Assembly (NCBI RefSeq): GCF_001854185.1
Contig: NZ_CP017603.1
Coordinates: 620,001 to 684,000, forward strand
DNA length: 64,000 nt
Reading direction: 5' to 3'
Source of the DNA: Clostridium formicaceticum
GTDB lineage: Bacteria > Bacillota > Clostridia > Peptostreptococcales > Natronincolaceae
Shown here: one piece after another, positions 15,676 through 46,085 of the stretch
Layout of the letters: each line of letters opens with the position of its first letter
How positions within the stretch are numbered: position 1 is the first letter of the stretch
Notes under the pieces: model-generated
Told to the model about the DNA's origin: nothing
What the model saw: only the letters and a program-made list of their open reading frames with translations
Database searches by the model: none
Made by a program: the position numbers and the translations under genes

Positions 15676-16046
15676 GATTCAAATTTATTCAAGTTAATTT
15701 AACTTTTTTAAAAACAGTTCATCTTTTTTAAAACGGTTTAATTTTTTTTAAGCCAACAAATGTATAAACATATTAATCTCCGCTCCATCCATCCCCCTCA
15801 AACCATTGAAACTTCGTTGCCATTTTCTGTTAAAATATTAAAGTCAACTCCAGATTTCCATTCTTCTTTTCTATTTTTTAGCCCATAATCCTTAATTCTT
15901 GACCCTATTTATGATAATAAAGTCGGCTCCAAATAGGGGTAAGGTGCAAGGAAAAAGGAGTAAAGATTCAATTTCTAATGTCTTTAATCAATACTCCTTT
16001 CAATATTCTTTTCATCTATTTTCCAATCAACAGTTCTTTCAATGCC

Positions 16047-16076
16047 TTTAAAATCAATACTTTTATCTATTCTTTT
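16047..16076 (+). repeat. 30-bp direct repeat, left copy
   Basis: Identical to 18648-18677; begins TTTAAAATCAATAC and abuts the left IS66 terminus exactly. Much longer than the 8-bp duplication usual for IS66. Confidence 0.85.
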
Positions 16077-16178
16077 GTAAGCGCCAAGGAATTAACGTAT
16101 AGAAATCCAATTTAATAGCTGATAAAATAAATCCAGTAGAAGTTAGATATGTTGCTAACTCTACTGGATTCTATATTT

Positions 16179-17789
16179 TTACTTAGCTTGAACTTTTAAA
16201 CTTTCAGGTAGTTCCTTTGAAAAGGGTAGTAGTTTTAACAAGCTTCCCTTGTCTTGAGGGTCTATATTTGAAAAGTTGTTCATTAAGTAAAGTAAATATT
16301 TTTCAACAACTAAATTATTGTTCTTAGCCGTTTCAGTGATGCTATAGATTAATGCACTAGACTCTGCACCTTTGGTTGAAGCTGAGAAAAGCCAGTTGCT
16401 ACGACCCACTACAAATGGTCTTATGGATCGCTCTGCAGAGTTATTATCTATTTCTAAAGATCCATCTTCTAGAAATACTTTTAAAAAACTAGGAAGTAGT
16501 GGTTTGGTATATGCTAAGGCTTTACCAAGGGCACTTTTGGGAACAGCATCTTTTATTTCTTTATCTACATAATCTATAAATTCTTCTATTATTGACTTGG
16601 ATGCGTCAAGTCGCTTTTTATAACGCCTCTCATAGAAATCTTCTTTTTCACCATGCTGTTCTTTTAGGTCTTTTTCGATTTCATAAAGCTGGGCACAATA
16701 ATTAAACCCTATCAATGCTCTTGAAGACTTTAGGGCTTCTTCGTCTAGATTCACTATTATTTCATGGAATTTTCTTCTTATGTGGGCTAGGCAATAAAGT
16801 CTTTTCACATTTTCAACTTTATTATATCCAGCATAGCCATCTGTTTGAATATATTTTGAAAATCCACTTAAAAAACCCTTAGGACAAGAACCAGATCTTG
16901 TCTTTTGGTAGTCGTAGATGATAATAGGTTGATCTTTATCTGGGCATTTATAGAGCCACATATACTTTTGTTTATTGGACTCCTTGCCCCTATCATCTAA
17001 AACTTTAACAACTGTTTCATCAGCCTGGATATAGTTTCTCTTAAGGAGCTCTTCCTTCATAAGCTGATAAATTGGATCTAGTTCATGGGCTGCACCAATA
17101 ACCCAGTTGGCAAGGGTTTGTCTAGAAAGATTTGCCCCCATCATCTTGAAGTAGGATTCTTGTCTATTTAAAGGCAGTGCATGCTGGTATTTTAAATTTA
17201 TGACATGACTAAGAAGCTCGTTAGATGTCATACTTTTGTGTAGTAGGGTCTTTGGAGCCTTTGTTGTAATTATATTTGCTTTATCATTATTTTCTTCACA
17301 TGATCTGCAGGCATAGCTGTAGGTTAGATGTTCTTCTACATACAGCTTTGCAGGTATATACTTTAACACTTCCTTTGACTTCTTACCTATAACCACTAAA
17401 TCACTGGAACAATCTCTGCAGGACTGTTGATCTTCATCAAGCTTATGCTCAATTACTATTTTTTCTAGGTTTGCTAAGTTATCTTTTTTTCCAGTATTGC
17501 TGGTTGGCTTCGTTCTCTTGTAAGTAATTTCCTCAATAGTAGGCTCAGCTGCTTTTAAGTTACTATCTTTTTCAGCTTCATCAAAAAAGGATACCTGTAT
17601 AGTATTAGCCTGTTCACTGGAAGAGCCAAATATTTTTCTGTTTTTATTAAGTACTTGATTTTTAAGATAAGCTAACTCATTTTTCAAGTTTTCTATTTCC
17701 TTATCCTTTGCTTCAAGCTCTTCTTCCATTTTTAAAATCAGTTCTTTCGTCTTTTCATCCAGTTGGTTTTGTACATTTATCTTCGTCAT
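16179..17789 (-). CDS. tnpC: IS66 transposase TnpC
   Basis: DDE transposase of about 536 residues. An N-terminal coiled coil (about 8-50), zinc-finger-like CRDCSSDLVV and CRSCEE, and a DDE core with IQADETVVKVL, YIQTDGYAGYN and the C-terminal IDNNSAERSIRPFVVGRSNWLFSASTKGAESSALIYS are present. Start chosen at MTKINVQNQLDEK after a GGGG ribosome binding site. Appears intact. Confidence 0.93.
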   Translation of the reverse strand: MTKINVQNQLDEKTKELILKMEEELEAKDKEIENLKNELAYLKNQVLNKNRKIFGSSSEQANTIQVSFFDEAEKDSNLKAAEPTIEEITYKRTKPTSNTGKKDNLANLEKIVIEHKLDEDQQSCRDCSSDLVVIGKKSKEVLKYIPAKLYVEEHLTYSYACRSCEENNDKANIITTKAPKTLLHKSMTSNELLSHVINLKYQHALPLNRQESYFKMMGANLSRQTLANWVIGAAHELDPIYQLMKEELLKRNYIQADETVVKVLDDRGKESNKQKYMWLYKCPDKDQPIIIYDYQKTRSGSCPKGFLSGFSKYIQTDGYAGYNKVENVKRLYCLAHIRRKFHEIIVNLDEEALKSSRALIGFNYCAQLYEIEKDLKEQHGEKEDFYERRYKKRLDASKSIIEEFIDYVDKEIKDAVPKSALGKALAYTKPLLPSFLKVFLEDGSLEIDNNSAERSIRPFVVGRSNWLFSASTKGAESSALIYSITETAKNNNLVVEKYLLYLMNNFSNIDPQDKGSLLKLLPFSKELPESLKVQAK

Positions 17790-17880
17790 TTTTATCCCCG
17801 TTTTCATTTTATTTACAAAATAATTATACCACAAAACCCTTGTAATTTGAATACTTACAAAGGTTTTGCGGTATCTCTTT

Positions 17881-18231
17881 TTAAAAGTAGTTTCTCTCTT
17901 TAACGGGCTTAAATTTTGATGCAGTTCTTACTTCATATCCCTTAAGTAGCCATCGTAATTCTTCTATGGAAACCTTTAGAGCTTCTTCTTTTGACATAGG
18001 CCATTTAAATTTATTTCTCTCTAGTCGATGATAGTATAGCCAAAACCCATCATCAAAATGGAGTATTTTTAGTTTATTCATCTGCCTATTACAAAAGACA
18101 AATAGTGCCTTTTCAAAAGGATCCAGATTAAACTGCGTTTGTACAATCATACTTAATCCATCTATATTTTTTCTAAGATCCGTTACCCCGCAAGCTAAAT
18201 ATACCTTATCCACTTTATCTATATTTAGCAT
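17881..18231 (-). CDS. tnpB: IS66 accessory protein TnpB (Orf2-like)
   Basis: 116 residues with the family signature VYLACGVTDLRKNIDGLSMIVQ and LFVFCNRQMNKLKILHFDDGFWLYYHRLE. Required with TnpA for transposition of IS66-type elements. Overlaps tnpA by 7 bp. Not related to the IS605 nuclease of the same name. Confidence 0.94.
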   Translation of the reverse strand: MLNIDKVDKVYLACGVTDLRKNIDGLSMIVQTQFNLDPFEKALFVFCNRQMNKLKILHFDDGFWLYYHRLERNKFKWPMSKEEALKVSIEELRWLLKGYEVRTASKFKPVKERNYF

Positions 18232-18563
18232 GATGCTATAATTTCCTTAAAAACATTAGATAGAGATACCTTGTCATTGCTTGGTATATATATCTTAGCT
18301 TTGCCTATTTCGATTTTTATAGTTGCCGTTGGGGAAGGATTAGATGGGGTATTTTCTTGATTTACAGCCTCATCAGCTTCCGTATCTTTAAAGCTAACAG
18401 CATGAAATACAGGAGTATTATTGTTTTCTAGCTTTTTTCTCCGATAATACAGCTGATGAATACCTATATTATTCTCTTCACAAAAGGCTTTGATGGTCCC
18501 TTCACGAGAAGAGAATTTATCTAAAATATCTTCCCAATCAATGTCTAGTGCTTCATTCGTCAT
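18225..18563 (-). CDS. tnpA: IS66 accessory protein TnpA (Orf1-like)
   Basis: 112-residue DNA-binding accessory protein with an HTH-like N-terminus (ILDKFSSREGTIKAFCEENNIGIHQLYYRRKKLE). First gene of IS66 copy 1; differs from copy 2 at several positions around residues 55-85. Confidence 0.92.
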   Translation of the reverse strand: MTNEALDIDWEDILDKFSSREGTIKAFCEENNIGIHQLYYRRKKLENNNTPVFHAVSFKDTEADEAVNQENTPSNPSPTATIKIEIGKAKIYIPSNDKVSLSNVFKEIIASC

Positions 18564-18647
18564 AACAGATACCTCCTATTGCTTATTATCTGTTATTCTA
18601 GCAAAACTTCTTGGTACAATACTAGGCAGAAATTCCTTGGCGCTTAC

Positions 18648-18677
18648 TTTAAAATCAATACTTTTATCTATTCTTTT
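18648..18677 (+). repeat. 30-bp direct repeat, right copy
   Basis: Identical to 16047-16076 and abuts the right IS66 terminus. Confidence 0.85.
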
Positions 18678-18737
18678 TCTATTCACAAATCTATTTATCC
18701 TTTTCACTTATTCCTTAATCCGTCCCCCTAACAAAGC

Positions 18738-18851
18738 AATTCCCGCAGCAAACGAGGATTTCTCCTGCGTCTACTACGGGAATTTGGAATCGACTTTATT
18801 CTCTTGGAGTCGAGTTTAATATTTTGGAGTCGAAATTATTATCAATATACA
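18738..18851 (+). repeat. Tn7-like right end, family A copy 1
   Basis: Begins with an imperfect hairpin (AATTCCCG / CGGGAATT, 18738-18785), then three TnsB-type sites GGAATCGACTTTATT, GGAGTCGAGTTTAA and GGAGTCGAAATTATT starting at 18786, 18806 and 18826, and terminates at ACA (18849-18851). The same hairpin-plus-sites order is found in canonical Tn7R. A related copy is at 43573-43669. Confidence 0.7.
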
Positions 18852-18901
18852 TGGTTAGGGTTATGTCTTTATTAACTCTTGGATTAAGGTTTATATTAAT
18901 A

Positions 18902-19417
18902 TTATGTTGGAAAAAAACTTCTATATATTCTGCTTTTATTTTCCTTTATCCAATAATAAAGAGATGTAAGAATGAGAAGAGCAATAATAAAAAATTGTCC
19001 AGTAAAAGAATATAATTTATATGTCATATATATTATCAACGACCATATGCTTAAATCTCCACCGTATCTACTACAAGACTTAATAAACATGTAATTTTCA
19101 AATAATGTATGTGCGACAACAACTACAAATATTGAAGAAATAAAAAGCAAAACAGTAAATATCTCCCAAATTCTCTCATTATCTTTTAAAAATTTTAGTA
19201 TTAGTTCATTATACTCTAATATCCAATCTATGTTTGATAAATCAAATGATTCATTGTCAATCTTTGATAGAAAACTATATAATGAATTCATTACAAAAAA
19301 ATACAAAGAAATAATCCATAAGAATTGCAATAAAGTAAATCTATTAAGCTTAGAAAAAATTCCCTTTACAGGCTCTGTAACTATATTAGCTATCCCCATC
19401 CCTATTGATACCTCCAT
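18902..19417 (-). CDS. Unknown membrane protein (cargo)
   Basis: 171 residues with four hydrophobic segments (about 29-49, 85-103, 120-135, 140-157) and no motif that I recognise. Last gene of the graspetide-associated cargo, separated from the next membrane protein by 72 bp. Very AT-rich. It may serve export, immunity or be unrelated; there is no sequence basis for choosing. Confidence 0.6.
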   Translation of the reverse strand: MEVSIGMGIANIVTEPVKGIFSKLNRFTLLQFLWIISLYFFVMNSLYSFLSKIDNESFDLSNIDWILEYNELILKFLKDNERIWEIFTVLLFISSIFVVVVAHTLFENYMFIKSCSRYGGDLSIWSLIIYMTYKLYSFTGQFFIIALLILTSLYYWIKENKSRIYRSFFPT

Positions 19418-19489: not shown

Positions 19490-20368
19490 CTATTGATTAG
19501 CTCCAGTATCATTCTCTAATCTATCTAACTTTTCAAATAAATTTTGATAGTTAGTTTCAATTAGCTTCATTTCATCCATCAATTTATCAATTTGTTCTTG
19601 TAATTTCTTTTCATTATTTAACGTGTTAATATTATGATTAATCTCATTTAAAACTTTATGAGCATTATCTAATTGTCTCTCAATATCTGTCAATTCTATT
19701 TGATTGTCAATCCTTACTATTTCAATGGATTCAGTCGTTCCAAAGTACTCACCCACACCTAAAAGAAATCCAGTTGTGCCAATAATTACAGCCAATACTA
19801 ATGTATATCTTGCTGCCTTTAGAATATCCGCTGTATTATCCGCAATATTTTGATTATAAATAGCTGAATTAAGTAATGTCTTAGATATACTCTTTCTATC
19901 AAAATTTTCGGCTGGTACTTCTGAATTAAAGTCAAATATGTCTGGTAAAAAGAAGGTTTTTCTCCCTTTGACATTAACGCATCTAAAAGATATTAATATT
20001 GATAATATTAATAAACCCATTGAAAATATCAGCATTGTTTTCGTAACCCAATTTGAAGCGTTTATAAATATAAAAGAAATAAATGCAAATAAAGCTGAAA
20101 CGTATGATAATAATGTAATTGCTTTATCTTCTAATTTATCAATTCTTGAGTTAGCATTATCAAAGAATTCCTTGCAAACATTATATATTATGTCTGTATC
20201 TTCGGAAATAAAGTCAGGTAGTTGTTCAGCTGGTTCTTTAGGCTGTTCATGGAAAGATAACGAATGCTTAAAAAGAAAAGTAAAATCTTTAATTATTTTT
20301 TTTATTTTGCTATAACTAACTTTTTCTCTTTCAATAAAAGGACTTAAATATTTATCTTGCCAATTCAA
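19490..20368 (-). CDS. Unknown membrane protein with C-terminal coiled coil
   Basis: 292 residues. A soluble N-terminus (1-85) is followed by helices at about 88-107, 111-130 and 185-210, and a long heptad-rich coiled coil (about 225-288). The helix-pair after a charged SRIDKLEDKAITLLSYVSALFAF stretch is reminiscent of small membrane effectors near defence genes, but similarity is weak. Follows the ATP-grasp ligase by 14 bp, so it is probably cotranscribed with the graspetide genes. Confidence 0.65.
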   Translation of the reverse strand: MNWQDKYLSPFIEREKVSYSKIKKIIKDFTFLFKHSLSFHEQPKEPAEQLPDFISEDTDIIYNVCKEFFDNANSRIDKLEDKAITLLSYVSALFAFISFIFINASNWVTKTMLIFSMGLLILSILISFRCVNVKGRKTFFLPDIFDFNSEVPAENFDRKSISKTLLNSAIYNQNIADNTADILKAARYTLVLAVIIGTTGFLLGVGEYFGTTESIEIVRIDNQIELTDIERQLDNAHKVLNEINHNINTLNNEKKLQEQIDKLMDEMKLIETNYQNLFEKLDRLENDTGANQ

Positions 20369-20382: not shown

Positions 20383-21324
20383 CTAATTCAATAGTTCATA
20401 AATAATTGCATCGCTTATTGGAAGATTAAGTTCTCTTTCTAACCAAACCCACTCCCCTGCAGGGTTAGTTTCAAGAAAATAATATTCTCCTGAAGGTGTT
20501 AATACAAAATCAAACGCTGAATATACCAAATTTAATTCTTCGTGAAGCCTAAACATTAAATTTGTTAAGGGTTCAGGTAACTTGTGTAGCTTATATTCTT
20601 TAATAATATTAGGTTTTCTCCAGTCTGTTTTCTCGGAATCATTAGTTTCTATTTCCACCGCAAATATTTCTTTGCCTACAACAGTTGCCCTTATATCACG
20701 ATAATTTTTTATTTTATTTTGAACGAAAACTGGAGACTCGAAAATTATATCCTGCTTAAGCCAATTAATATCTTTTATTTCAGATGTATAAATTGAGTAT
20801 GATCCTTGAGGTGTAACTTGTAATCCATGACAAATCGGTTTAATGATGCATGTACCGTTGTTTTCTATAAAATTGAGTAACTGCTTAGAGCTATTTGACA
20901 CTATTGAATTGGGTGTCTTAAAACCTAATTCCTTTGCAAGAGACAATTGATAGATTTTTCTTTCTGCTTTGTAGGTTGCAAATATTGGGTTAACCCATTT
21001 ACAATTTAATGATAGATATAATCCTTCAAAAAAATCCTTTCTTTCTCCATTTATAAATTTCATATCATTTAAATCATGTGTATTAGGAAATATTGAAGGA
21101 GCTCTCCTAAAATAAGCTGATTGCAACTTCTCAAAAGAATATTCATAATCTTGATATTTTAAATTAACACTCTTACCAAAACCATAAGTCATTCCTATTT
21201 GTGTTATATCTTCTGAATTCAACCTTAAATAGGGTATTTTCCTATCCATAAATTTATAGATTAAATAATCAATCGCCAAGTCATCTTTATTGGTAACAAA
21301 CAATACTTTTGGATATACTGTCAT
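20383..21324 (-). CDS. Graspetide-type ATP-grasp peptide ligase
   Basis: 313-residue ATP-grasp enzyme of the MvdC/MvdD-like group, which links Thr/Ser/Lys side chains to Asp/Glu side chains on a precursor peptide. Visible are the nucleotide-binding CIIKPICHG, the RDIRATVVGKEIFAVEIE strand pair and the C-terminal metal/ATP motif FLETNPAGEWVWLE, typical of graspetide ligases. Its start overlaps the precursor stop by one base (position 21324). Assignment is strong because the precursor has a repeated Thr/Glu/Asp core. Confidence 0.9.
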   Translation of the reverse strand: MTVYPKVLFVTNKDDLAIDYLIYKFMDRKIPYLRLNSEDITQIGMTYGFGKSVNLKYQDYEYSFEKLQSAYFRRAPSIFPNTHDLNDMKFINGERKDFFEGLYLSLNCKWVNPIFATYKAERKIYQLSLAKELGFKTPNSIVSNSSKQLLNFIENNGTCIIKPICHGLQVTPQGSYSIYTSEIKDINWLKQDIIFESPVFVQNKIKNYRDIRATVVGKEIFAVEIETNDSEKTDWRKPNIIKEYKLHKLPEPLTNLMFRLHEELNLVYSAFDFVLTPSGEYYFLETNPAGEWVWLERELNLPISDAIIYELLN

Positions 21325-21806
21325 TACGATTGTTCACTCCTATCAATCGATTCTCTTGTAAAAGTAGTTAAAGTTTGAAATAATGTATTTTGGCTATCGG
21401 TGGCTCGTTCGGACCTATCAATTCCTTCTCGTGTACATGTTTCTAAAGTTTGTCCTAATATTTTAGAATAATTTTGTTTAGGTTCTTCAGAATATTGGCA
21501 AGATATTTCGGCTCTATCTATCCCCTCTCGTGATTCTGTAATCAGAGTTTTATCGACAAAAAACTGATTAGATTCATTGTAACTGGAAGCTTCTGACCTA
21601 TCTATTCCTTCTCGTGTTCTCGTTATCAAGGTTTCTTGGCACTCATTTGAATACTGCGTTGATGTAATGTATTTTTTAATTAGGGGTTGCCCTGATTCAT
21701 CCATCCATAATCCTGTAGAAAAATCATACTTAATATTTTCGAATTCCACACCTTCATTAGTATTGCACTTCGTTCTATATTGAAGTAATGGACTCCTTTG
21801 ATTCAT
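21324..21806 (-). CDS. Multi-core graspetide precursor peptide
   Basis: 160-residue precursor starting MNQRSPLLQYRTKC, with GGGAGGAG 9 bases upstream. A leader (1-58) is followed by four core repeats at residues 59-72, 87-100, 120-133 and 145-158 with consensus TLxTxTREGIDRSE. Each has three Thr/Ser donors (positions 1, 4, 6) and three acids (Glu8, Asp11, Glu14), suited to three side-chain ester links per repeat. The spacers between repeats are variable and of low conservation. The motif differs from the microviridin (TxKxPSD) and plesiocin (TTxxxxEE) cores. Confidence 0.88.
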   Translation of the reverse strand: MNQRSPLLQYRTKCNTNEGVEFENIKYDFSTGLWMDESGQPLIKKYITSTQYSNECQETLITRTREGIDRSEASSYNESNQFFVDKTLITESREGIDRAEISCQYSEEPKQNYSKILGQTLETCTREGIDRSERATDSQNTLFQTLTTFTRESIDRSEQS

Positions 21807-21913: not shown

Positions 21914-21944
21914 CAAAAAAAGACTGAATAACAAATTCAGCCTT
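21914..21944 (-). terminator. Terminator of the tnsA2BCD2 operon
   Basis: On the minus strand AAGGCTGAAT-TTGTT-ATTCAGTCTT is followed by seven T bases. It separates the transposition genes from the graspetide operon. Confidence 0.8.
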
Positions 21945-22006: not shown

Positions 22007-22249
22007 TTAATTACCTCTATTACTATATCCCATATAAATCACCCAGCAACCATATCCAAAGGAAATAATCCAATTTATCACAGGTGTAAAAAGTATTAGA
22101 AACACTACGATTATAAATATTGCTCTATGTCGAATATCAGATAACTCAATTTCAATATTGATTTTCTTTTCTTCATCTCCCCCGAATACTTTTGGAAAAT
22201 TATTTTCTGCTATTGTGGAAATTAAGATGATACTCAATTGAGTTGTCAT
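22007..22249 (-). CDS. Small membrane protein behind tnsD2
   Basis: Up to 80 residues with a strong hydrophobic segment (about 43-73). The reading frame overlaps the tnsD2 end by 50 bp; the ATG at 22249 lacks a clear ribosome binding site, whereas GGGGGAG occurs before residue 27, so the true protein may be shorter. It lies before the operon terminator. No function recognised. Confidence 0.45.
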   Translation of the reverse strand: MTTQLSIILISTIAENNFPKVFGGDEEKKINIEIELSDIRHRAIFIIVVFLILFTPVINWIISFGYGCWVIYMGYSNRGN

Positions 22250-24176
22250 TAATTATAACTGAATTCTCATACCCATTCCCCCTTATTGTTTGATTATTTA
22301 GCAGTTCAGTAATAGCATCTATTAAGTCCTCTTGATATTCCTGTCTTATTGCAGCTCTTCTAAAAATTCTCCATATCATCAATTCATGCCCTTCTTTTTC
22401 TATCTCTCTTATCGCCCACTTAATTTTTCTGATATGAAACTCTCTACTGGATTCTCTAACCGTTTCAATATATTCTTTTGTCCTTGGTAGCTTATCTAAG
22501 TGCTTCTCCATCAAAGCCTTTACTCCTAATTTCTTAGCAATGGAACCAATACATATTTTCTCTGGCTTATTATCAGTAGTGAGCATGTTTTCTACCAGCT
22601 CCTTAACCTTTATATTAATAGCATTGTCTCTGCTTACCCAATCAACTCTTACACTGGTATTAGCAGTGGATTGTTTTAAGGGAGAATTTTCATTAAGCCA
22701 ATTTTTATCATATTTATATAACCACATATAAAGGGATTTATTAATATTTCTTAACTCTGTTTTACCTTTATCAGGATATAAATGCCGTAGTTTCAACCAT
22801 TCTTCTCTATTCTTAATTCTATTTTCTTCAATTAAAGAATTTTCTTTACTCTCACTTGCTGTTTGAATTGTTTTATCACTTCTCCTTTCCCAACAGCTTT
22901 CTAATTGCATTTTGTCAACATACTTCTTCACAGTACCTGGGTCTACACCCAATTCATTTGCAGTCGCCCTTAGTGTTAATTTCGACTCTACCAAATCCTT
23001 CAATCTCTGCTCCCATATATGCCCAAATTCTTTGATTCTGGAGAACTGGTATTTATTATTATCATCCACATCTGGACCTCTGCGGGTATAGGTAAAACCA
23101 CAATTACACCTAAAAACTCCAATTGGAATTTTAAATTCCGAATCATAGTTTATTTTTAAGTCGTTTACTACAGGATTTTTATAGTGTTCAGCAGCCTTAT
23201 TTAAGCAAGGCCAAGGTCCAGTACCGAAGGGCTTATACTCTATTTTTTTATAGAATAAATCATCTAAACTAAGTCTAAGAAACCCTGCCAATAATAGGTG
23301 TCTCATCGGATGGCTTGTCTTATTTTTTCTTCTAATCATATCCAAAAGCCAGTTTATTTCACTTTTAGTATCCACAGGAGATTGAAGTAAATTTAATAAG
23401 TTACCCCCATAATAATCCATAAAGCTTTGTAAAAATTCTTTTCTATTGATGTTCCCATTAATATTTGCAAAGCCGTATTTCTTCAACTTGCTAATGTATT
23501 GTTCTCTAAACCATTCCAATGGCTTGTTGCCGTATTTTCTATTAAGTAGAGATTCTGCACCTTTAGCTAATACTATTAAATTAACCAACATATTTTTAGG
23601 GTACTGAACTCCTATATCATGACTTACACAGTTTATAATTGTAGGAATTACATACTCATGCTTATTACTTCCTCTAACCTCTACACTACTATCCAGTAAA
23701 GGAACTTCATGGGTTGGACAGACTAATACTCCTGGTATTTGGTGTACTCGATGCCAGTATAACTCTCCGTACCTTTCTAAATCCTCTTTGTTGCATTCAG
23801 GGCAAAATCTGAAGAATCGATTTAAAGTAATTGAGCTGGCCATTATTCCAATTCTCGTATAGATATCTCCTCCATTTTCTCCTTCCATAGACTGTATAAT
23901 TTCTTCAGCTCTGTTTAGTGGAAGAAATGAACCATAGAATGGATATAAAGTATGCTTGAAGATTAATTCTGATGTTGTATATTGATGATTAATAGGCATA
24001 TTTTCTATGAGCTTTTGAAAATGGGAGGGTATCTCCATTACTGCTGTTGTATGGTTTGAACTGAAAAGGTCCTCCATTGTAGACTTAATACTGATATTGC
24101 CACTTCTAATATGATACCTGGCAAAGGTACTATACATTATTTCATCTTCATAAGGTACTGGAAAAAAAGTTAACAT
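22200..24176 (-). CDS. tnsD: TnsD-type TniQ target-selection protein (full length)
   Basis: 658 residues starting MLTFFPVPYEDEIMYSTFARYH after GGAGGGG. The TniQ domain (1-300) holds a zinc-binding group FCPEC...CPTH (Cys125, Cys128, Cys153, His156). The long C-terminal part has HTH-like segments (ATANELGVDPGTVKKYV, IAKLGVKALMEKHL-like), as in TnsD, which binds the 3' end of glmS. Its start overlaps tnsC2 by 7 bp. With glmS at the array end, it is the likely attachment-site selector. Confidence 0.9.
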   Translation of the reverse strand: MLTFFPVPYEDEIMYSTFARYHIRSGNISIKSTMEDLFSSNHTTAVMEIPSHFQKLIENMPINHQYTTSELIFKHTLYPFYGSFLPLNRAEEIIQSMEGENGGDIYTRIGIMASSITLNRFFRFCPECNKEDLERYGELYWHRVHQIPGVLVCPTHEVPLLDSSVEVRGSNKHEYVIPTIINCVSHDIGVQYPKNMLVNLIVLAKGAESLLNRKYGNKPLEWFREQYISKLKKYGFANINGNINRKEFLQSFMDYYGGNLLNLLQSPVDTKSEINWLLDMIRRKNKTSHPMRHLLLAGFLRLSLDDLFYKKIEYKPFGTGPWPCLNKAAEHYKNPVVNDLKINYDSEFKIPIGVFRCNCGFTYTRRGPDVDDNNKYQFSRIKEFGHIWEQRLKDLVESKLTLRATANELGVDPGTVKKYVDKMQLESCWERRSDKTIQTASESKENSLIEENRIKNREEWLKLRHLYPDKGKTELRNINKSLYMWLYKYDKNWLNENSPLKQSTANTSVRVDWVSRDNAINIKVKELVENMLTTDNKPEKICIGSIAKKLGVKALMEKHLDKLPRTKEYIETVRESSREFHIRKIKWAIREIEKEGHELMIWRIFRRAAIRQEYQEDLIDAITELLNNQTIRGNGYENSVIINDNSIEYHLNFHNSRK

Positions 24177-25849
24177 ATCTTCTTCCCCTCCATACAGCAA
24201 TCTACATCCGAATGTTTTATATATCCCTTTTCTTTTAACATCGTGTAGGCTGAAACTTGCTTATGTTTATCTTCTTCCACTATTGCTCTAATATCATCTC
24301 TACCTCTTGCTTTAACATCTTTCTTCTTTCTTTGCTTTTTTTTCTGTCTCTTCTCGCTATCTGCAATTTTTTGAAGTGCTTTGATTACAAGTTCACCAGT
24401 CCCTATAGATTCTCCATCAATAGTAATTACCTCGGCAATTGCCGTTTCTGCGCTTTCTGTATCTATTTCCAACTCAATCAATTTCATTATTGCCTTTTCT
24501 CTTGATGTCTTATTTTCTTCTGCTTCTTTTTTCCGTTTCTTTAACAATTGTAATTCTTTCATGTTGATATCTAAATCATATCTTGGCCTCTGTAGACTAA
24601 TAAACTCTTCAAAATTAATAGGGCATATATCCTCAAACTGTGCAATTCTTCTTATATCTCCAGACTTAAGAGCCTCAATCATTGGTTTTACCAATTTGAA
24701 ATTTTCCTCTGCCACTTGTCTTATAAGGGCTTCATCCACTAATTCACTACCACTCAATATAGCTCTTATCTGTGCCATTGCATAGAGTTTAACTGCTATA
24801 TCAATAATTCCTTGGGAATGTTCATACATCATATTGCTGATTCTCGATGTAAGAAAAACAGGAGTTTTTGTCCATTGGTAATCCCATAATGCACTAAGCA
24901 ACAATTCCCAATTATCATCTTGCTTTAATCGCTCATAGGTTAAATCTCCTTGTCCAGAGCCTCTCCTTGCTTGTCTAAATTCACCTTGTAAGAGAGATAG
25001 TGCCTTCATTGTACCAATCAGAACTACAGGAACTCCGATTGTATTCACCAGGGTAACAAAGAAATTTAACATCCGCTCACTTCCACCACTTTTAGCTTGT
25101 TTTAAATGTTGTATTTCATCAATGATTAATAAGCCTAATCCAATGCTCCTTGCAATTTGAGACATGACTGAAAGCATTGTATCTACAGTATGCCGACCGT
25201 TAATATGTTTTTGATAATACTTGGTTCCCAATAGACTATCTACTTTATTAAAAAACTCCATACATAGACCCCTAATGCTGCCATCGTAGGGGCAGTCCAG
25301 TTTCAGCCAAACTAATTGATAAATACTAAAATTATTTTCTTTGTATTTAGAATGGACTATAATTTGAGGAATCATTGACAGAATACGATTTACTGCTGTT
25401 GTTTTTCCCATCCCACTTACCCCTACGATTGAAAATCCTGCTGCTGTTGTTCGAAATGAACTATTAACAGTCAAATCGAGACTTAGGTTTTGTATCATCC
25501 GATAGCCATCTTGAAGTCCAGATGCAAATTCAGGGCGAAACGGGTTTCTTGCAAGGTAACTCTGCCGTATAACCCTCGATAATCTACTTTCTATATCTAA
25601 ATGGATTTCTAAAGGTTGAAAGCATTGAAATAATCTCTGAACAAGATGAACTCTATAATGACTCTCAAGTATTCGCTCTTTATCATCATACTTAGGATAC
25701 ACCGATAATTTATCAATAACTTCTATCTTCGAACTTATTTGGGGGAGAGCTTCTATCAAGGGATTCCCACTATATTCTTGTATCAACTGTTCTTTATATT
25801 CTGCTTTTATAGCCTCACCGCCATTTGGGATTATAATTTTTCTATTCAT
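24170..25849 (-). CDS. tnsC: TnsC AAA+ transposition regulator
   Basis: 559 residues (Tn7 TnsC has 555). Walker A GVSGMGKT (143-150) and Walker B LLIIDEIQHL (Asp244, Glu245) are intact, followed by sensor-1-like VPVVLIGTMKAL. It links target-bound TnsD to the TnsAB transposase. ATG overlaps the tnsB2 stop by 8 bp (ATGAATAG), indicating translational coupling. Only TnsC gene in the window. Confidence 0.93.
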   Translation of the reverse strand: MNRKIIIPNGGEAIKAEYKEQLIQEYSGNPLIEALPQISSKIEVIDKLSVYPKYDDKERILESHYRVHLVQRLFQCFQPLEIHLDIESRLSRVIRQSYLARNPFRPEFASGLQDGYRMIQNLSLDLTVNSSFRTTAAGFSIVGVSGMGKTTAVNRILSMIPQIIVHSKYKENNFSIYQLVWLKLDCPYDGSIRGLCMEFFNKVDSLLGTKYYQKHINGRHTVDTMLSVMSQIARSIGLGLLIIDEIQHLKQAKSGGSERMLNFFVTLVNTIGVPVVLIGTMKALSLLQGEFRQARRGSGQGDLTYERLKQDDNWELLLSALWDYQWTKTPVFLTSRISNMMYEHSQGIIDIAVKLYAMAQIRAILSGSELVDEALIRQVAEENFKLVKPMIEALKSGDIRRIAQFEDICPINFEEFISLQRPRYDLDINMKELQLLKKRKKEAEENKTSREKAIMKLIELEIDTESAETAIAEVITIDGESIGTGELVIKALQKIADSEKRQKKKQRKKKDVKARGRDDIRAIVEEDKHKQVSAYTMLKEKGYIKHSDVDCCMEGKKIC

Positions 25850-28004
25850 GAATTTTAGATAATGCCTCCTTTTGCTTTTTTCTAAGTAGCTCCAAATCAT
25901 TTACTGCATTACTTTTCTTCTCTTTTATTTCTAAATCTATCACCTGTGAATTTATATTGACCTTTTCCTGCTTCAGCTCAAAGGTTTCACTTTCTCTGTT
26001 CAACATTCTTTCTATTTTTCTATTTTTTCTAATCCCTCCTAAACGCTTTCTATCGCTCTCCTCTGTTTTTTTATTCATTTTCAGTTGCTTATCAGATTCT
26101 TTAACGATATGTTCTATTTCTGTTATCAATTCTATTTTATTCTGCAAGTCTTTTTCGGAAGCAATTTTTGCATCTATTTTCTCCTTCTCAATTAGATACT
26201 CAATTTCTTCATAACTTTTATCTTGGTATCCACTTTGGTACTCCAACAAATAGCATTTATCAAAATCCATTTCATTAGGGTTTCTAATATAGATATAGTC
26301 CAAATTTCGCGGGTCATAGCAGACATTTACTCTCCAAGACCCTTTATTTCGTGCTTTCTCAAACCATCTCTCTTTTAACGTTATAGATGACCCATAATAT
26401 AGATTTTTAAATTTAATACCTTTACCAGTCACTGTAGCAGTAGCAGTTGGCATTAAGTTTAGTTTTACAATTTCTTCTGATACCTGTCGCAACTTCCCTG
26501 AACGATTTTCTATCCCCCAGTTCCACAACTCCCTTGGTATGCATTTAACGTCATCATTTATCATCATTTCTTCTCGACAGTAATTCTTTAGATAATGGTG
26601 GTTGTTGTGGTAAAGGGCACATTTTATCATGATTTGAGTAAATTGAAATATATCCAATTTTGCATCTAATCTATAATCTTTGTCCCCTCTCTCCCTTACA
26701 TTAGAGTCAATTGTACCTGGTAAAAAAGGTTTTACTCTTGTATTAGTAATTTTAAAATGCTGTTCAACTATACCTTTCCAATCTGCTCTGTAGGGTGGTG
26801 TATTCTGGATTTTTATATGTAGTCCATTGATTAGATTTTCAATATTTTTTCCTTCTAACTCTCCTCTGTCTGCAAGTATTGCTTCTGGAAGATGATGAAC
26901 TGGCCACTGATTTTCTTCTATTTCTATATCAAACCTTTTGCAGAATTCTACTTTATTACTGGCTGTGTTTTCTAAAGCCATCATAGCTCCAATCCAACTG
27001 GGTCCTTCAAGTCCAATATACAGGCCAGCAATTGCCCTTGAAAACACATCTATAGCAACGTAAATTACTGGTCTACCAATTATCCAATTGCGATTAAATC
27101 TACTGACGAGATAAATATCTCCCACCGTCGCATCTATTTGATAAATACTTCCAGGGCCTAATGCTTCTACAGTAGAATTTCCAATGATTGCTCTATTCTG
27201 TTGCTCATATTTCTTTGCACTTTTCCTTAGTGTTATTTCTTTTTTTATATTTCTTTCCTTTTCAAACCAATACTTAAATTGTGCATAGGTTGGAACTTCA
27301 TTATCTGGTTTAATAATTGGAATAAGAATTCCATTTTCTGTTTTATAGTCACTTACAAAGAATTCTTTTCTCATTAGTTCATATGCAAGCTTTAAGGAGT
27401 TTTGAGCCTTTGTGTTGTAGAATTTATTGATTGCAGCTCTAAATACTTGTTTAATTTCCTCATCAACATTTATCCCTTCCCCCAGTAATTCTTTATTCAT
27501 CCTTTTTCGTCCCCGTTTCGCAGCGCCTGACGATTTTTCTTTACCAGGGCCTCCACAGCGATAGTAGTCTGGTAAAAGAGCATTAATCGTCTTACCTCTT
27601 ATCCAATAATTTTTCAAATATTTATAGACAGTCTTTTCATGTACATTATGAAATTTAGCATATTTCATTATTAACTCTTTCCTCGCTTTTGGAACAAAAA
27701 TCATAGGCTCCTGTGCAATCAATTCACAAATAATTTGCCATGCTTTGTCCCTTCGCTCTTTAGCCAGTTCCGATATATCTTCTTCATGAATGATTTTTGT
27801 AAAAGGGTCATCTTCATATAATAGAGCAGTATACTCTGATATGGCTCCTTCAATCTCCGAAACACATCTGCTAAAGGGACTGTTATTAAGAAAAATATCA
27901 ATTACATAAGCTATATCCTGCTTTCTATCTATCCATAGAATTCTTTCAATTTTTTCTACTTCGTCGGTCTTTTTCCATCTAATTAATGTATTAACAGCAA
28001 TCAT
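25842..28004 (-). CDS. tnsB: TnsB DDE transposase (complete set)
   Basis: 720 residues. Catalytic Asp291 (YQIDATVGD), Asp379 (ILADRGELEG) and Glu414 (GIVEQHFKI) have the same spacing (88 and 35 residues) as D273, D361 and E396 of Tn7 TnsB. N-terminal HTH domains and a charged C-terminal tail (about 600-720) that would contact TnsC are present. It binds the end repeats and joins 3' ends to target. Overlaps tnsA2 by ATGA. Confidence 0.95.
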   Translation of the reverse strand: MIAVNTLIRWKKTDEVEKIERILWIDRKQDIAYVIDIFLNNSPFSRCVSEIEGAISEYTALLYEDDPFTKIIHEEDISELAKERRDKAWQIICELIAQEPMIFVPKARKELIMKYAKFHNVHEKTVYKYLKNYWIRGKTINALLPDYYRCGGPGKEKSSGAAKRGRKRMNKELLGEGINVDEEIKQVFRAAINKFYNTKAQNSLKLAYELMRKEFFVSDYKTENGILIPIIKPDNEVPTYAQFKYWFEKERNIKKEITLRKSAKKYEQQNRAIIGNSTVEALGPGSIYQIDATVGDIYLVSRFNRNWIIGRPVIYVAIDVFSRAIAGLYIGLEGPSWIGAMMALENTASNKVEFCKRFDIEIEENQWPVHHLPEAILADRGELEGKNIENLINGLHIKIQNTPPYRADWKGIVEQHFKITNTRVKPFLPGTIDSNVRERGDKDYRLDAKLDIFQFTQIMIKCALYHNNHHYLKNYCREEMMINDDVKCIPRELWNWGIENRSGKLRQVSEEIVKLNLMPTATATVTGKGIKFKNLYYGSSITLKERWFEKARNKGSWRVNVCYDPRNLDYIYIRNPNEMDFDKCYLLEYQSGYQDKSYEEIEYLIEKEKIDAKIASEKDLQNKIELITEIEHIVKESDKQLKMNKKTEESDRKRLGGIRKNRKIERMLNRESETFELKQEKVNINSQVIDLEIKEKKSNAVNDLELLRKKQKEALSKIHE

Positions 28005-28846
28005 ATTACCCTCACTTCCTTAAATCCTATTTTATTGGTAATACTGATATCTTCAATTGACTCGCTAATATTTATCTTCTTAAGCATATCAATCTGAATT
28101 TTTTTTGATGCTATTAAATGTTTAAAAATGAACAGTCCTGTCCCTACATCGAGATTAAATTCTTTATCAAAATCTGCTGTAAAGACTCTAATGGACTTGG
28201 AATTTCCATGTATTCTTTCAATAAAACGAATACAATAATAGTTCATTTCATCTATAGTTAAGCCTCTTTCAGCGCTTGAAAGCAGTGAAGAGTGTATCCA
28301 TGCAATATTCTTAGCTTTAATTACAGAAATATCTTTTTGTGTAACGATACCCCAGTCAATATTTTTACTCCTCCAATATCTTCTCTCTATTTCCAGTCTT
28401 TCTAAAACTAACTTTCTTTCTAATTCGTAGTCTGCTTTTATAGACCTGGCAGCATAAAAAGTATCTCCTTTTTCATCCTTCAAGGTTATAAGAAAAGAAG
28501 TTGATAGGACATAGAGGACTCCAGATTCTTTATCTTTAAATAAATCTATATATAAATCTTCCTTTTCTTTAACAATTTCCTGAAAGTCCAGTAAGGGATA
28601 ATGTTCTCTAATATCAACTACGGAATCATTCCATTCTAATAGATAAAAATATCTGGTTTCAGTATCAGTAAGGAAATGATGTATCCTATCTGTTTTCCAG
28701 CCAACTAAACGGGAAGCCCTACCCTTCGAAGGGAAATCCTGAATGGTAAGCCACGGAATATAATTTTTTCCTGTTCCTTGTCCCCTTCCTTCTCTAATCA
28801 TTCTATTTAATTTATCCATTGAAAAATTTGAATTTCTTTTTGCCAT
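28001..28846 (-). CDS. tnsA: TnsA endonuclease homologue, catalytic Asp replaced
   Basis: 281 residues, colinear with Tn7 TnsA (RGQGTGKNYIPWL matches RGQGHGKDYIPWL). TnsA cuts the 5' strands at transposon ends. Glu63 (TDTET) and Lys137 (RSIKA) align with catalytic E63 and K132, but the catalytic Asp (D114, in STDFL) is Ser117 here (STSFL). In Tn7, loss of this Asp abolishes 5' cleavage and produces cointegrates. Start preceded by AGGAGGTG. Its upstream region is interrupted by IS66 copy 2 only 57 bp away. Confidence 0.92.
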   Translation of the reverse strand: MAKRNSNFSMDKLNRMIREGRGQGTGKNYIPWLTIQDFPSKGRASRLVGWKTDRIHHFLTDTETRYFYLLEWNDSVVDIREHYPLLDFQEIVKEKEDLYIDLFKDKESGVLYVLSTSFLITLKDEKGDTFYAARSIKADYELERKLVLERLEIERRYWRSKNIDWGIVTQKDISVIKAKNIAWIHSSLLSSAERGLTIDEMNYYCIRFIERIHGNSKSIRVFTADFDKEFNLDVGTGLFIFKHLIASKKIQIDMLKKINISESIEDISITNKIGFKEVRVI

Positions 28847-33268: not shown

Positions 33269-33282
33269 CAATCATAGCTCCT

Positions 33283-34098
33283 TTATACATTAGTTTTAGT
33301 TTCTATAATATCATTATCGAATACTTTCATATTTGAATAATTAAACAATTTATTCATATCGACTTGGACTTTTTTGTGTAGAATTAGGTATTTAAGAAAT
33401 GATAATCCTTCCCCATCTTTTAAGCTATTCATTCTCTCAAATTGAAGTGTACTTTCTATTACAATATTGTTATTATCATTTAAAATCATCTTAAAATCAT
33501 TTATATATTTTAACAGTTGATAATCGCTTATCAAATTTCGTTGATTCCAATCATAATAATTGTATATGGAATATAAATTTTGGGCTTTTATTTTATCTAT
33601 ATGAATATCTAATACAATTCCCCAATCTATTTTCTTATGCTGAAAATATTGCTTTTCTATTAACAGTTTTTCTCGTGTTCTTTGCTTATCGAAATCTTTT
33701 TTCGCTTTTACAGTCCTTACAATATTTTTAAAATTATTATTATCCTGTATGGTAATGAGAAAATCTGTTGTCATTACATATTCTTTACCTATTTTATTTT
33801 TTTCTGCTGGATGTCTTATACCCATTTCATTTGCAAGTAGAATCGTTTGCTCTATAGGTAATAAAGGAAACTGTTCTCTAATATCAATTACTTTATCTTC
33901 CCACTGTATTATTAGAAAATAATACAGTTCTAAATCACTCATTAATTGATGTATCCTACCCGTTTTCCAACCTTTAATTCTATGTACCCTTGAATGAGCG
34001 CCAAATTCGTGTACCTTTAACCAAGGTTTATATTGGTTGTAAGCTCCAACGCCTCGTCCTTCTATTAATTTATATTTATCTGATTTTTGCCTTGCCAT
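33283..34098 (-). CDS. tnsA: TnsA endonuclease, second set, active site intact
   Basis: 271 residues with all three catalytic positions: Glu57 (SDLEL), Asp112 (MTTDFLI) and Lys131 (RTVKAKK), matching E63, D114 and K132 of Tn7 TnsA. REQFPLLP is identical to Tn7. ATG preceded by AGGAGG. Lies 14 bp before tnsB1. It is only distantly related to the TnsA at 28001, so the two sets were not formed by recent duplication. Confidence 0.93.
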   Translation of the reverse strand: MARQKSDKYKLIEGRGVGAYNQYKPWLKVHEFGAHSRVHRIKGWKTGRIHQLMSDLELYYFLIIQWEDKVIDIREQFPLLPIEQTILLANEMGIRHPAEKNKIGKEYVMTTDFLITIQDNNNFKNIVRTVKAKKDFDKQRTREKLLIEKQYFQHKKIDWGIVLDIHIDKIKAQNLYSIYNYYDWNQRNLISDYQLLKYINDFKMILNDNNNIVIESTLQFERMNSLKDGEGLSFLKYLILHKKVQVDMNKLFNYSNMKVFDNDIIETKTNV

Positions 34099-34136
34099 AA
34101 ATCCTCCTGTGTTATTCTAATTTCTTGTGTAACACA

Positions 34137-34168
34137 TAAAAAGACACTGTTGATTTTTCAACAGTGTC
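34137..34168 (-). terminator. Terminator of the short tniQ gene
   Basis: On the minus strand GGACACTGTTGA and TCAACAGTGTC form an 11-bp perfect stem ending in TTTTT. It isolates tniQ1 from tnsA1. Confidence 0.9.
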
Positions 34169-35264: not shown

Positions 35265-35267
35265 CAA

Positions 35268-38978: not shown

Positions 38979-38980
38979 AC

Positions 38981-42307: not shown

Positions 42308-42330
42308 ACTCACAGTTCCCCCCCCTTATG

Positions 42331-44086: not shown

Positions 44087-44138
44087 AAAAAATCATGGAA
44101 GATTCAGTCTCAAAAACTGATATCTTTCCATGATTTTT
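44087..44138 (-). terminator. Hairpin in element B right end, likely glmS terminator
   Basis: AAAAATCATGGAAGAT pairs with ATCTTTCCATGATTTTT and encloses TCAGT/ACTGA. On the minus strand it ends in seven T bases 120 bp past glmS. A hairpin just inside the end sites also occurs in Tn7R, where it shields the element from outside transcription. Confidence 0.75.
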
Positions 44139-44258
44139 AGGTCAACTTTTTTTGTTCTAGGTGGACTTTATTGTCATTAGGTGAACTTTATTTGGAGTGT
44201 ACAGCATAGTATAGAACTTTGTTGAAAACATACAACACTATTTGTGCTTACATTCTCC

Positions 44259-46085
44259 TTATTCCACAGTAACCGACTTAGCTAAATTTTTCGGCTTATC
44301 CACATCACAACCTCTAGCCACAGCAATATAGTAAGCTAATATTTGTAGAGGAATCACTGATAAAACCGGCGTAAGCTCATCCAATGTGTTTGGTATATAG
44401 ATAGCAATATCCGCTGATTTTTCTATCTCTGTATTACCCTCCTTCGCCACCGCTACTACATAAGCACCCCTTGCCTTCACCTCTTTGATGTTGGAAAGCA
44501 TCTTATCATATAGATGATCCTGCGTAGCTAGAGCAACTACTAGTGTTCCTTCTTCAATTAAAGCAATGGTTCCATGCTTTAATTCTCCCGCAGCAATAGC
44601 TTCAGAATGAATATAGGAAATCTCTTTTAATTTTAATGACCCTTCCCTACCCACATGATCATCAATACCTCTACCAATATAAAATACATTTTGATTGTTA
44701 AACTGCTTATCCGCTAACTCTTGTAGGAGTTGTTTATCCTGTAAAAGCTTTTCTGCTTTTTCAGGGAAGGTTTTAAGTTCATTTAGCACTGCATCATATT
44801 TTCCCTTAGTAATTGTACCTTTCTTTAATCCCATATCTAATGCAATTAAATACATAGCCACCAATTGTGTAGTATATGCCTTTGTAGAAGCTACAGCGAT
44901 TTCTGGTCCCGCCCATGTATAGAAGACATCATCTGCTTCTCTAGAAATTCTACTACCTACTACATTGGTTACTGCCAATACCCTAGCGCCCTTTTCCTTG
45001 GCCTCTCTAAGAGCAGCTAAAGTATCTGCTGTTTCACCAGACTGGCTTACAGCAATAAATAAAGTTCTGTCATCCACAAAGGGATCTCTATATCTAAACT
45101 CTGATGCTACGTCCGTCTCTACTGGAATTTTAGCAAATTTTTCTATAGCATATCTTCCCACTAAACCTGCATGATAGGCAGTACCGCAGGCTACGATTAC
45201 GACCTTATTAATTTTTTCTAGATCTTCTTTTGTCAGCTTAATATCATCCAGTACAATTTCATTCTTATTGTTAACTCTTGGAGATATGGTTTCTTTTAAG
45301 GCCTTCGGCTGTTCATAAATTTCTTTAATCATGAAGTGCTGATAGCCTCCCTTTTCTGCCGCTTCCACATCCCATGTTACTTCAAATACTTCTTTTTCAA
45401 CTTTTTCCCCGAACTCATTTAACATTGTAATATTATTTTCATCTAAAACAGCCATTTCGCCATCATTTAAAAAATAAACATTTCTTGTATACTTTAATAA
45501 AGCTGGAATATCAGAAGCTATAAAGTTTTCACCCTCACCTATTCCTACTACTAACGGGCTATCTTTTCTAACTGCCACGAGTTTTTCAGGATTTTTTCTA
45601 CTGATGACACCAATAGCATAGGCACCTTCCATTCTGCTTATAGCTTTTTGTACTGCCTCTACTAAATCTTCCTTGTAATAGTAATCTACTAAGTGCGCAA
45701 TAACCTCTGTATCCGTTTCAGAAACAAATATTTTTCCCTGTGCAGTTAACCATTCCTTTAGCTTCATATAGTTTTCTATAATACCATTATGCACTACAGC
45801 AATATCCCCTGCATAATTGGTATGAGGATGAGCATTCACATCATTTGGTTCTCCATGTGTTGCCCATCTAGTATGACCAATGCCTAAGGTACCTGGTATA
45901 CTTTCATTATTTAAATGTTCTTCTAATACACTTAGTCTTCCTTTGTACTTTCTAACAACGATATCTTGATCAGTATAAACCGCTATCCCAGCTGAATCAT
46001 ATCCTCTATATTCTAATTTTTCTAACCCATCTACTAAGATAGGAGCAGCCTCTTTTTTACCTATATATCCAACAATTCCACACAT
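44259..46085 (-). CDS. glmS: Glucosamine-6-phosphate synthase
   Basis: Converts fructose-6-phosphate and glutamine to glucosamine-6-phosphate, the first step of UDP-GlcNAc synthesis. 608 residues: N-terminal Cys2 glutaminase domain (MCGIVGYIG), then two SIS isomerase domains (SQSGETADT, DVGREGSLKLKEISYIHSEAIAAGELKHG) and the conserved end DKPKNLAKSVTVE. Those last codons form the usual TnsD-binding part of attTn7. Controlled by the ribozyme at 46255. Confidence 0.98.
   Translation of the reverse strand: MCGIVGYIGKKEAAPILVDGLEKLEYRGYDSAGIAVYTDQDIVVRKYKGRLSVLEEHLNNESIPGTLGIGHTRWATHGEPNDVNAHPHTNYAGDIAVVHNGIIENYMKLKEWLTAQGKIFVSETDTEVIAHLVDYYYKEDLVEAVQKAISRMEGAYAIGVISRKNPEKLVAVRKDSPLVVGIGEGENFIASDIPALLKYTRNVYFLNDGEMAVLDENNITMLNEFGEKVEKEVFEVTWDVEAAEKGGYQHFMIKEIYEQPKALKETISPRVNNKNEIVLDDIKLTKEDLEKINKVVIVACGTAYHAGLVGRYAIEKFAKIPVETDVASEFRYRDPFVDDRTLFIAVSQSGETADTLAALREAKEKGARVLAVTNVVGSRISREADDVFYTWAGPEIAVASTKAYTTQLVAMYLIALDMGLKKGTITKGKYDAVLNELKTFPEKAEKLLQDKQLLQELADKQFNNQNVFYIGRGIDDHVGREGSLKLKEISYIHSEAIAAGELKHGTIALIEEGTLVVALATQDHLYDKMLSNIKEVKARGAYVVAVAKEGNTEIEKSADIAIYIPNTLDELTPVLSVIPLQILAYYIAVARGCDVDKPKNLAKSVTVE

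What the first reader, a model, noticed from the sequence alone, without database searches (positions are those of the whole stretch)
20383..21806. Graspetide with a four-fold TLxTxTREGIDRSE core
The precursor carries four repeats, each with three Thr/Ser and three acidic residues at fixed positions (1, 4, 6 and 8, 11, 14), followed immediately by a graspetide-type ATP-grasp ligase with NPAGEWVWLE. The core differs from the microviridin and plesiocin cores. In repeat 2 the third donor is Ser (TESRE) and in repeat 4 Gly9 is Ser, both conservative. Three nested esters per repeat, 12 in total, are predicted.
Basis: partly seen in the sequence, partly recalled or inferred. Interest (0 to 1): 0.8.

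Follow-up and report, generated by a model that had tools for sequence, protein, structure and literature searches.

The report
Transposon-borne four-core graspetide gene cassette
A small gene set that makes a chemically cross-linked peptide of a known class (graspetides) is really present; its repeat pattern is a variant of known multi-repeat members, and the less expected part is that it rides on a Tn7-like jumping element, beside a membrane protein and among virus-defence genes.

Summary
On the minus strand, 21806-21327 encodes a 160-aa precursor with four exact T1-T4-T/S6-E8-D11-E14 repeats. No one of 200,000 shuffles of the protein has two. A 1-nt-overlapping ATP-grasp ligase of the microviridin/graspetide type follows. 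Relatives in Caloramator, Geosporobacter, Lutispora and Clostridium tepidiprofundi keep precursor, ligase and a downstream 3-TM protein, with core residues 86% identical against 30% in linkers (window vs Caloramator) and omega 0.10-0.24. So it is a real graspetide cassette of the multi-core kind (thuringinin-like; Makarova 'cluster 13'). 'Three nested esters, 12 in all' is not established: Heliobacterium chlorum lacks E14 in two of three repeats and one C. tepidiprofundi repeat lacks D11, so 8-12 is the defensible range. Nearly identical copies (96-98%) occur in genomes whose glmS is only 67-68% identical. A SLATT-like membrane protein family sits near 46 of 87 graspetide ligases examined; several such loci border Gabija, BREX, Hachiman-like or Lamassu genes, Tn7 or phage genomes. 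A role in defence or inter-microbial conflict is plausible but unproven.

The parts
21327..21806 (-). graspetide precursor, 160 aa, four TxxTx(T/S)REx(I)DRxE cores
   Evidence: ORF; repeats and shuffles; orthologues
21777..21791 (-). leader motif PLLQY (Phhx(1,2)h type, proposed ligase-binding motif)
   Evidence: motif definition from PMC8939145
21591..21632 (-). core repeat 1 TLITRTREGIDRSE
21507..21548 (-). core repeat 2 TLITESREGIDRAE
21408..21449 (-). core repeat 3 TLETCTREGIDRSE
21333..21374 (-). core repeat 4 TLTTFTRESIDRSE
20383..21324 (-). ATP-grasp graspetide synthetase, 313 aa; overlaps precursor stop by 1 nt (TAATG)
19490..20368 (-). 3-TM membrane protein with C-terminal coiled coil, weakly SLATT-like; family recurs next to graspetide ligases
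18902..19417 (-). 171-aa membrane protein, last gene of the cassette, conserved in Caloramator, Geosporobacter and Lutispora
21920..21944 (-). terminator-like hairpin between the tnsD side and the precursor
   Evidence: consensus scan only
22200..24200 (-). tnsD (TniQ + TnsD domains)
   Evidence: Pfam TnsD 7e-119, TniQ 3e-27
24170..25900 (-). tnsC-like AAA ATPase (TniB)
   Evidence: Pfam AAA_22, TniB
25842..28004 (-). tnsB-like transposase
   Evidence: Pfam Mu-transpos_C 4e-10
28001..28846 (-). tnsA
   Evidence: Pfam TnsA N and C domains
18784..18843 (+). three tandem 20-bp TnsB-site-like repeats (Tn7-type end)
   Evidence: same layout in L007 10819-10878
15767..15931 (+). three spaced TnsB-site-like repeats (other Tn7-type end, IS66 inserted between the two sets)
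   Evidence: same layout in L007 11033-11215
44135..44203 (.). Tn7-type end next to glmS, terminus TGTACA
44259..46085 (-). glmS, the attachment gene of Tn7

Best explanation
This is a multi-core graspetide biosynthetic cassette carried by a Tn7-like transposon. The precursor's N-terminal leader (PLLQY region) recruits the ATP-grasp ligase, which phosphorylates the Glu/Asp side chains of each 14-residue repeat and closes them onto the upstream Thr/Ser hydroxyls. That gives two to three side-chain esters per repeat (8-12 water losses in all) and turns the precursor into a string of four hairpin-like macrocyclic heads joined by variable linkers. The heads carry a conserved Arg between the third Thr and the first Glu and probably act as multivalent binders or inhibitors of an Arg-specific (trypsin-like) protease. 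The co-transcribed 3-TM protein is the functional partner, as exporter, receptor or membrane effector. Shown by sequence: gene order, motif, conservation, ligase family, mobility. Inferred: ester formation, protease target, role of the membrane protein.
For: Ligase family and solved relatives. Catalytic-type residues kept across diverse relatives, e.g. D-x-R (invariant R212), E285/N287 in ETNPAGEW, K162. Leader motif. Precursor-ligase 1-nt overlap. Four-gene order kept in Caloramator, Geosporobacter and Lutispora; precursor, ligase and 3-TM protein also in C. tepidiprofundi. Core identity 48/56 against linker 14/46 between window and Caloramator. Purifying selection, omega 0.10-0.24 for the precursor. 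T4 and E8 invariant and T1, T6, D11 in 17 of 18 distinct repeats. Transposon linkage: tnsABCD beside the cassette, tnsBCD or tnsD remnants beside all four close relatives, Tn7-type ends, and a cassette 96-98% identical between genomes whose glmS regions are 67-68% identical.
Against: No chemistry was or can be tested here. The ligase scores below every curated NCBIfam cut-off. No peptidase or transporter gene is in the cassette, so processing and export are unexplained. E14 is not universal and one repeat in a relative lacks D11, so ring number is uncertain. The protease-inhibitor role is borrowed from other graspetides.
Confidence: 0.82

Rival explanations
1. Mobile conflict or anti-phage module: the cross-linked peptide controls, or is sensed together with, a SLATT-like pore-forming membrane protein. 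In the resting state peptide and membrane protein are silent; attack (for example a phage protease cutting the heads, or loss of ligase activity) releases the membrane protein, which damages the membrane and stops the infected cell.
For: Membrane protein family found near 46 of 87 graspetide ligases, with leave-one-out HMM E-values of 1e-17 or better for all 30 aligned members. Weak SLATT matches (NCBIfam SLATT_5 1e-3, PADLOC RT-associated SLATT 3e-4); SLATT is a predicted pore-forming effector of conflict systems (PMC7159879). Loci lie in Tn7-like elements, whose cargo is rich in phage defence (PMC11406308), or beside CBASS and type III RM (window), HamB (Caloramator), Gabija (L041, L054, L064, L068), BrxL (L039), LmuA (L073). 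Cassettes also sit in a Leptospira phage and a gut phage scaffold.
Against: SLATT similarity is far below curated thresholds and absent from Pfam hits. The AlphaFold model gave only generic helical-bundle matches. The control comparison counts PADLOC families, not genes, and the control loci differ in taxonomy. Passengers of defence islands need not be defence genes. Published analysis proposed transport for a thuringinin-locus membrane protein (cluster 18).
Confidence: 0.3
2. Secreted multi-headed protease inhibitor or antimicrobial whose 3-TM protein exports it or protects the producer.
For: All graspetides characterised up to the 2022 survey were protease inhibitors, and a membrane protein specific to thuringinin loci was proposed as transporter (PMC8939145). 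The four heads resemble tetravalent plesiocin.
Against: The 3-TM protein has no transporter family match. No C39 peptidase, ABC transporter or signal peptide was seen in the cassette. Association with defence and mobile elements is unexplained by it.
Confidence: 0.4
3. Each repeat carries exactly three nested esters (T6-E8, T4-D11, T1-E14), 12 in total.
For: Three donors precede three acceptors in all four window repeats; OEP6-1 has three nested cross-links.
Against: E14 is missing from two of three Heliobacterium repeats and D11 from one C. tepidiprofundi repeat although all three Thr remain. The inner T6-E8 ring would span only i,i+2.
Confidence: 0.35
4. The repeats are a structural or adhesion-type repeat and the ligase acts on something else; no ester-linked product forms.
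For: No chemistry shown.
Against: The ligase belongs to the peptide-macrocyclase family, lies directly behind the precursor in all close relatives, and donor/acceptor positions are the most conserved ones.
Confidence: 0.05

Closest known systems
Thuringinin and related multi-repeat graspetides (Lee 2020 groups 3, 5, 6; Makarova 2022 precursor cluster 13)
   Same: Several repeats of a Thr...Glu/Asp core behind a shared leader, one ATP-grasp ligase; a membrane protein specific to thuringinin loci is known (cluster 18).
   Different: Here four repeats with T1,T4,T6 / E8,D11,E14. From memory the thuringinin consensus is TxxTxxxExxDxD, which would share T1, T4, E8 and D11 but not the last acid; not verified because the papers are not held.
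OEP6-1 (group 6 graspetide)
   Different: Exact spacing could not be compared; tandem four-fold repetition here.
Plesiocin (group 2)
   Same: Four tandem macrocyclic heads made by one ligase.
   Different: Two esters per head in a TTxxxxEE-type core (motif from memory; two per repeat).
Microviridin / AMdnA / chryseoviridin
   Same: Homologous ligases, leader of the same general type.
   Different: Different core, two ligases in microviridin, lactam present.
SLATT-domain effectors of conflict systems, including RT-associated SLATT
   Same: Long helix plus TM hairpin, similar position next to defence genes; weak HMM matches.
   Different: Third TM segment, scores far below curated cut-offs, no fold match found.
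Cargo of Tn7-like transposons (Benler 2021)
   Same: Position beside tnsD and in a glmS-linked island with defence genes.
   Different: The survey's main text names no graspetide or ATP-grasp RiPP cargo.

Membership tests
Graspetides | ATP-grasp ligase of the MvdC/MvdD/GRASP maturase type beside the precursor | tested here: met
   1-nt overlap with the precursor
Graspetides | Donor residues (Thr/Ser/Lys) precede acceptor Asp/Glu in the core | tested here: met
   four window repeats and relatives
Graspetides | Conserved leader with Phhx(1,2)h motif near the N-terminus | tested here: met
   PLLQY at residues 6-10, kept in close relatives
Graspetides | Ligase-dependent omega-ester or amide formation | not testable with these tools
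   needs co-expression and mass spectrometry
Thuringinin-like multi-core graspetides (cluster 13; groups 3/5/6) | Several tandem Thr/Glu/Asp core repeats with one ligase | tested here: met
Thuringinin-like multi-core graspetides (cluster 13; groups 3/5/6) | Exact group core motif | tested here: inconclusive
   group-defining papers not held; only a remembered motif was available
Thuringinin-like multi-core graspetides (cluster 13; groups 3/5/6) | Membrane protein of cluster 18 in the locus | tested here: inconclusive
   a recurring 3-TM family is present; identity with cluster 18 could not be checked
Tn7-like transposon cargo | tnsA, tnsB, tnsC and tnsD/tniQ genes adjacent | tested here: met
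Tn7-like transposon cargo | Element ends with TnsB-type repeats and TGT...ACA termini | tested here: met
   the end pair belonging to the cassette's own element is not uniquely assigned
Tn7-like transposon cargo | 5-bp target duplication at both ends | tested here: inconclusive
   no matching duplication found for the Caloramator element within the DNA read
SLATT domain family | Score above the curated SLATT model cut-off | tested here: not met
   NCBIfam SLATT_5 18.1 bits against 60; no Pfam SLATT hit among those listed
Known anti-phage defence system | Cassette gene matches a known defence model | tested here: inconclusive
   only weak RTasSLATT and LmuB coiled-coil matches for the membrane protein; none for the ligase

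The most novel reading that the evidence does not exclude
Graspetide plus SLATT-like membrane protein is a widespread, transferable conflict or anti-phage module. It is spread by Tn7-like transposons and prophages, in which an ester-cross-linked peptide gates a membrane-damaging effector; the four-core TREGID peptide is one lineage of it.
Probability: 0.27. Interest if true: 0.88.

Novelty: new variant of a known kind. Interest (0 to 1): 0.52.

Why it matters
The natural roles and native targets of graspetides are still described as elusive (PMC9826346). A cassette with a constant membrane partner, moved by Tn7-like elements and phages and parked among defence genes, gives a concrete and cheap hypothesis to test: phage challenge and toxicity of the membrane protein with and without peptide and ligase. 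It also offers a compact four-headed scaffold, with a tolerant linker and strongly conserved heads, for macrocycle chemistry.

Tried and rejected
Thuringinin and group papers (ChemBioChem 2019, JACS 2020, Ramesh 2021) are not held, so the exact group of the core stays open. A first motif search with 'TREG' only found regulatory T cells. Precursor in plasmids: no match; in viral contigs: no relative. The ligase search in plasmids found only matches of about 32% identity or less among those listed, none in Bacillota apart from Ligilactobacillus. Structure of the 3-TM protein: pLDDT 78, only generic helical-bundle matches, Z up to 11.7, so no fold claim is made. The other end of the Caloramator transposon and the missing half of the macrodomain gene it seems to interrupt were not found in 9-34 kb of the contig. 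The idea that the tandem and spaced end repeats delimit the cassette element itself was weakened: they face away from each other and look like a mini-element beside the cargo. The PADLOC flank comparison (155 against 40 model families at E 1e-25) is only indicative. Rejected: chance repeat, pseudogene (omega), IS66 passenger (cassette is tied to tnsD in genomes without that IS arrangement).

Full report
OBSERVATION. The two genes are at the stated coordinates on the minus strand. The precursor has 160 codons from the ATG at 21806; its TAA stop shares one base with the ATG of the ligase (TAATG), a sign of translational coupling. Four repeats of the form T1 x x T4 x T/S6 R7 E8 G/S9 I10 D11 R12 x E14 occur at residues 59-72, 87-100, 120-133 and 145-158. 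In 200,000 shuffles of the same protein none contains two such matches. The ligase is an ATP-grasp enzyme of the graspetide type: NCBIfam GRASP_SAV_5884, MvdC and MvdD models match with E 9e-58 to 3e-40, below their curated cut-offs, and the nearest solved structures are AMdnB, an ATP-grasp ligase of entry 5ig8, and CdnC.

RELATIVES. The genome-contig scan and the genome searches found five species with the same kind of cassette: the window's own genome, Caloramator quimbayensis (L007), Geosporobacter subterraneus (L003/L008), Lutispora thermophila (L010) and Clostridium tepidiprofundi (L009), ligases 62-74% identical. A more distant relative is Heliobacterium chlorum (L011, 37%, three repeats). 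It is rare: 4 of 391 genomes sampled from the class, the window's own included. Between window and Caloramator precursors the 56 core residues are 86% identical, the linkers 30%, and omega of the precursor is 0.10-0.24. This is what is expected if the repeats are the product and the linkers are not.

HOW MANY ESTERS. Over 18 distinct repeats, T4 and E8 never vary; T1 (one Ser), T6 (one Ser) and D11 (one Tyr) vary once; E14 is lost in two of the three Heliobacterium repeats. So the invariant heart is T1/T4/T6 with E8/D11, enough for two esters, and E14 adds a third only in some repeats. I therefore put the total at 8-12 and do not accept 12 as a prediction.

SURROUNDINGS. Downstream lie a 292-aa protein with three TM segments and a coiled coil, and a 171-aa membrane protein; in the three closest relatives both follow in the same order, and C. 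tepidiprofundi keeps at least the first. Upstream lie tnsD, tnsC, tnsB and tnsA. The same neighbourhood occurs in Caloramator and Geosporobacter (tnsB, tnsC and tnsD), and decayed tnsD pieces remain beside the precursor in C. tepidiprofundi and Lutispora. The window island ends at glmS (44259-46085), with a Tn7-type end (TGTACA, three 20-bp repeats) 56 bases from the end of the gene. TnsD-type proteins direct Tn7 to glmS (PMC11406308). Between glmS and the cassette are a CBASS pair (SAVED-2TM and a CD-NTase), a type III restriction-modification system, a second partial tns set, and IS66 genes. In Caloramator a HamB-like helicase lies upstream of tnsA. The cassettes of Caloramator, Geosporobacter and Lutispora are 96-98% identical in DNA although their glmS regions are only 67-68% identical: recent horizontal transfer.

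THE MEMBRANE PARTNER. Collecting ORFs beside other graspetide ligases showed the same 3-TM family in 46 of 87 loci across several phyla; each of 30 aligned members is recovered by a profile of the other 29 at E 1e-17 or better. It may be the 'cluster 18' membrane protein of Makarova et al., who proposed peptide transport; I could not check this. It has weak matches to SLATT models, which are predicted pore-forming effectors, but it fails the curated cut-off and no informative fold match was found. Other graspetide types with this partner also sit beside tnsD remnants (L051, L094, L095), beside tnsBCD (L052) or downstream of glmS (L073); beside Gabija (L041, L054, L064, L068), BrxL (L039), LmuA (L073) and a PDC-M36A protein (L062); and in a Leptospira phage and a gut phage scaffold. 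Flanks of loci with the partner matched 155 PADLOC model families at E 1e-25 against 40 for flanks of graspetide loci chosen as lacking it (one control locus, L029, later proved to have a partner-like ORF); this counts models rather than genes, and the two sets differ in taxonomy.

INTERPRETATION. Class assignment is close to certain; chemistry is inferred from homology. The most likely product is a four-headed cross-linked peptide. The conserved Arg in the ring suggests an Arg-specific protease as target (inference). Function remains open between a secreted inhibitor with a membrane protein for export or immunity, and an intracellular conflict or defence module with a membrane effector. The mobile and defence setting raises the second, but nothing here demonstrates it.

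COMPARISON WITH THE KNOWN. Multi-repeat graspetides of groups 3, 5 and 6 share this architecture and leader, and thuringinin, plesiocin and OEP6-1 already show two or three cross-links per head. The core is therefore a variant of a known kind. The linkage to Tn7-like transposons is not named in the main text of the cargo survey that is held, and no held paper found by my searches links graspetides to SLATT-like proteins; absence from this library is not proof of novelty.

Noticed in passing
window 36357-43482: CBASS pair (2TM-SAVED effector 43482-42331, CD-NTase 42313-40889) and type III restriction-modification genes (40627-36357) in the same glmS-linked Tn7-like island.
   Followed up: partly
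window 31466-35267: A second, partial Tn7-like set (tniQ/tnsD, tnsA, tnsB) without an obvious tnsC, in tandem with the complete tnsABCD set.
   Followed up: partly
window 43717-44203 and 15758-18853; L007 10808-11221: Apparent mini Tn7-like elements: two outward-facing ends (tandem 20-bp repeats and spaced repeats) with no tns genes between; the 15758-18853 one is split by IS66.
   Followed up: partly
L007 11213-12103: The Tn7-type terminus ...TATACA at 11221 abuts a 5'-truncated macrodomain gene, as if the element had inserted into it; the other half was not found.
   Followed up: partly
L051, L094, L095, L073, L052: Single-core graspetides with a TKKxDxETGEDxKGE-type tail (shorter TKKHDVERGEDQK in L052) lie beside tnsD remnants, tnsBCD or glmS, so a second graspetide lineage also associates with Tn7-like elements.
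   Followed up: partly
L041, L054, L064, L068: Graspetide plus 3-TM cassettes (Bacillaceae and an Oscillospiraceae bacterium) lie close to Gabija genes.
   Followed up: partly
L105 (KF114876.1 56617-62549): Leptospira phage vB_LalZ_80412-LE1 carries a graspetide-type precursor (TKTFTQRESDDEE-like cores), ligase and 3-TM protein beside HTH and ParB-like genes; a gut phage scaffold (L106) has ligase and 3-TM protein.
   Followed up: partly
L090, L091, L092: Precursors with TKTxVxREDDDD-type cores and a 3-TM protein gene upstream (L090, L091) or downstream (L092) of the ligase.
   Followed up: no
L007 8369-10769: Further cargo genes shared by Caloramator and Lutispora: DUF4238/SEC-C protein, a 116-aa protein and a DUF2971 protein.
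   Followed up: no
L029 6946-8631: A 562-aa ORF matching the 3-TM family after a graspetide-type ligase in a Chlamydiae MAG; possible fusion.
   Followed up: no
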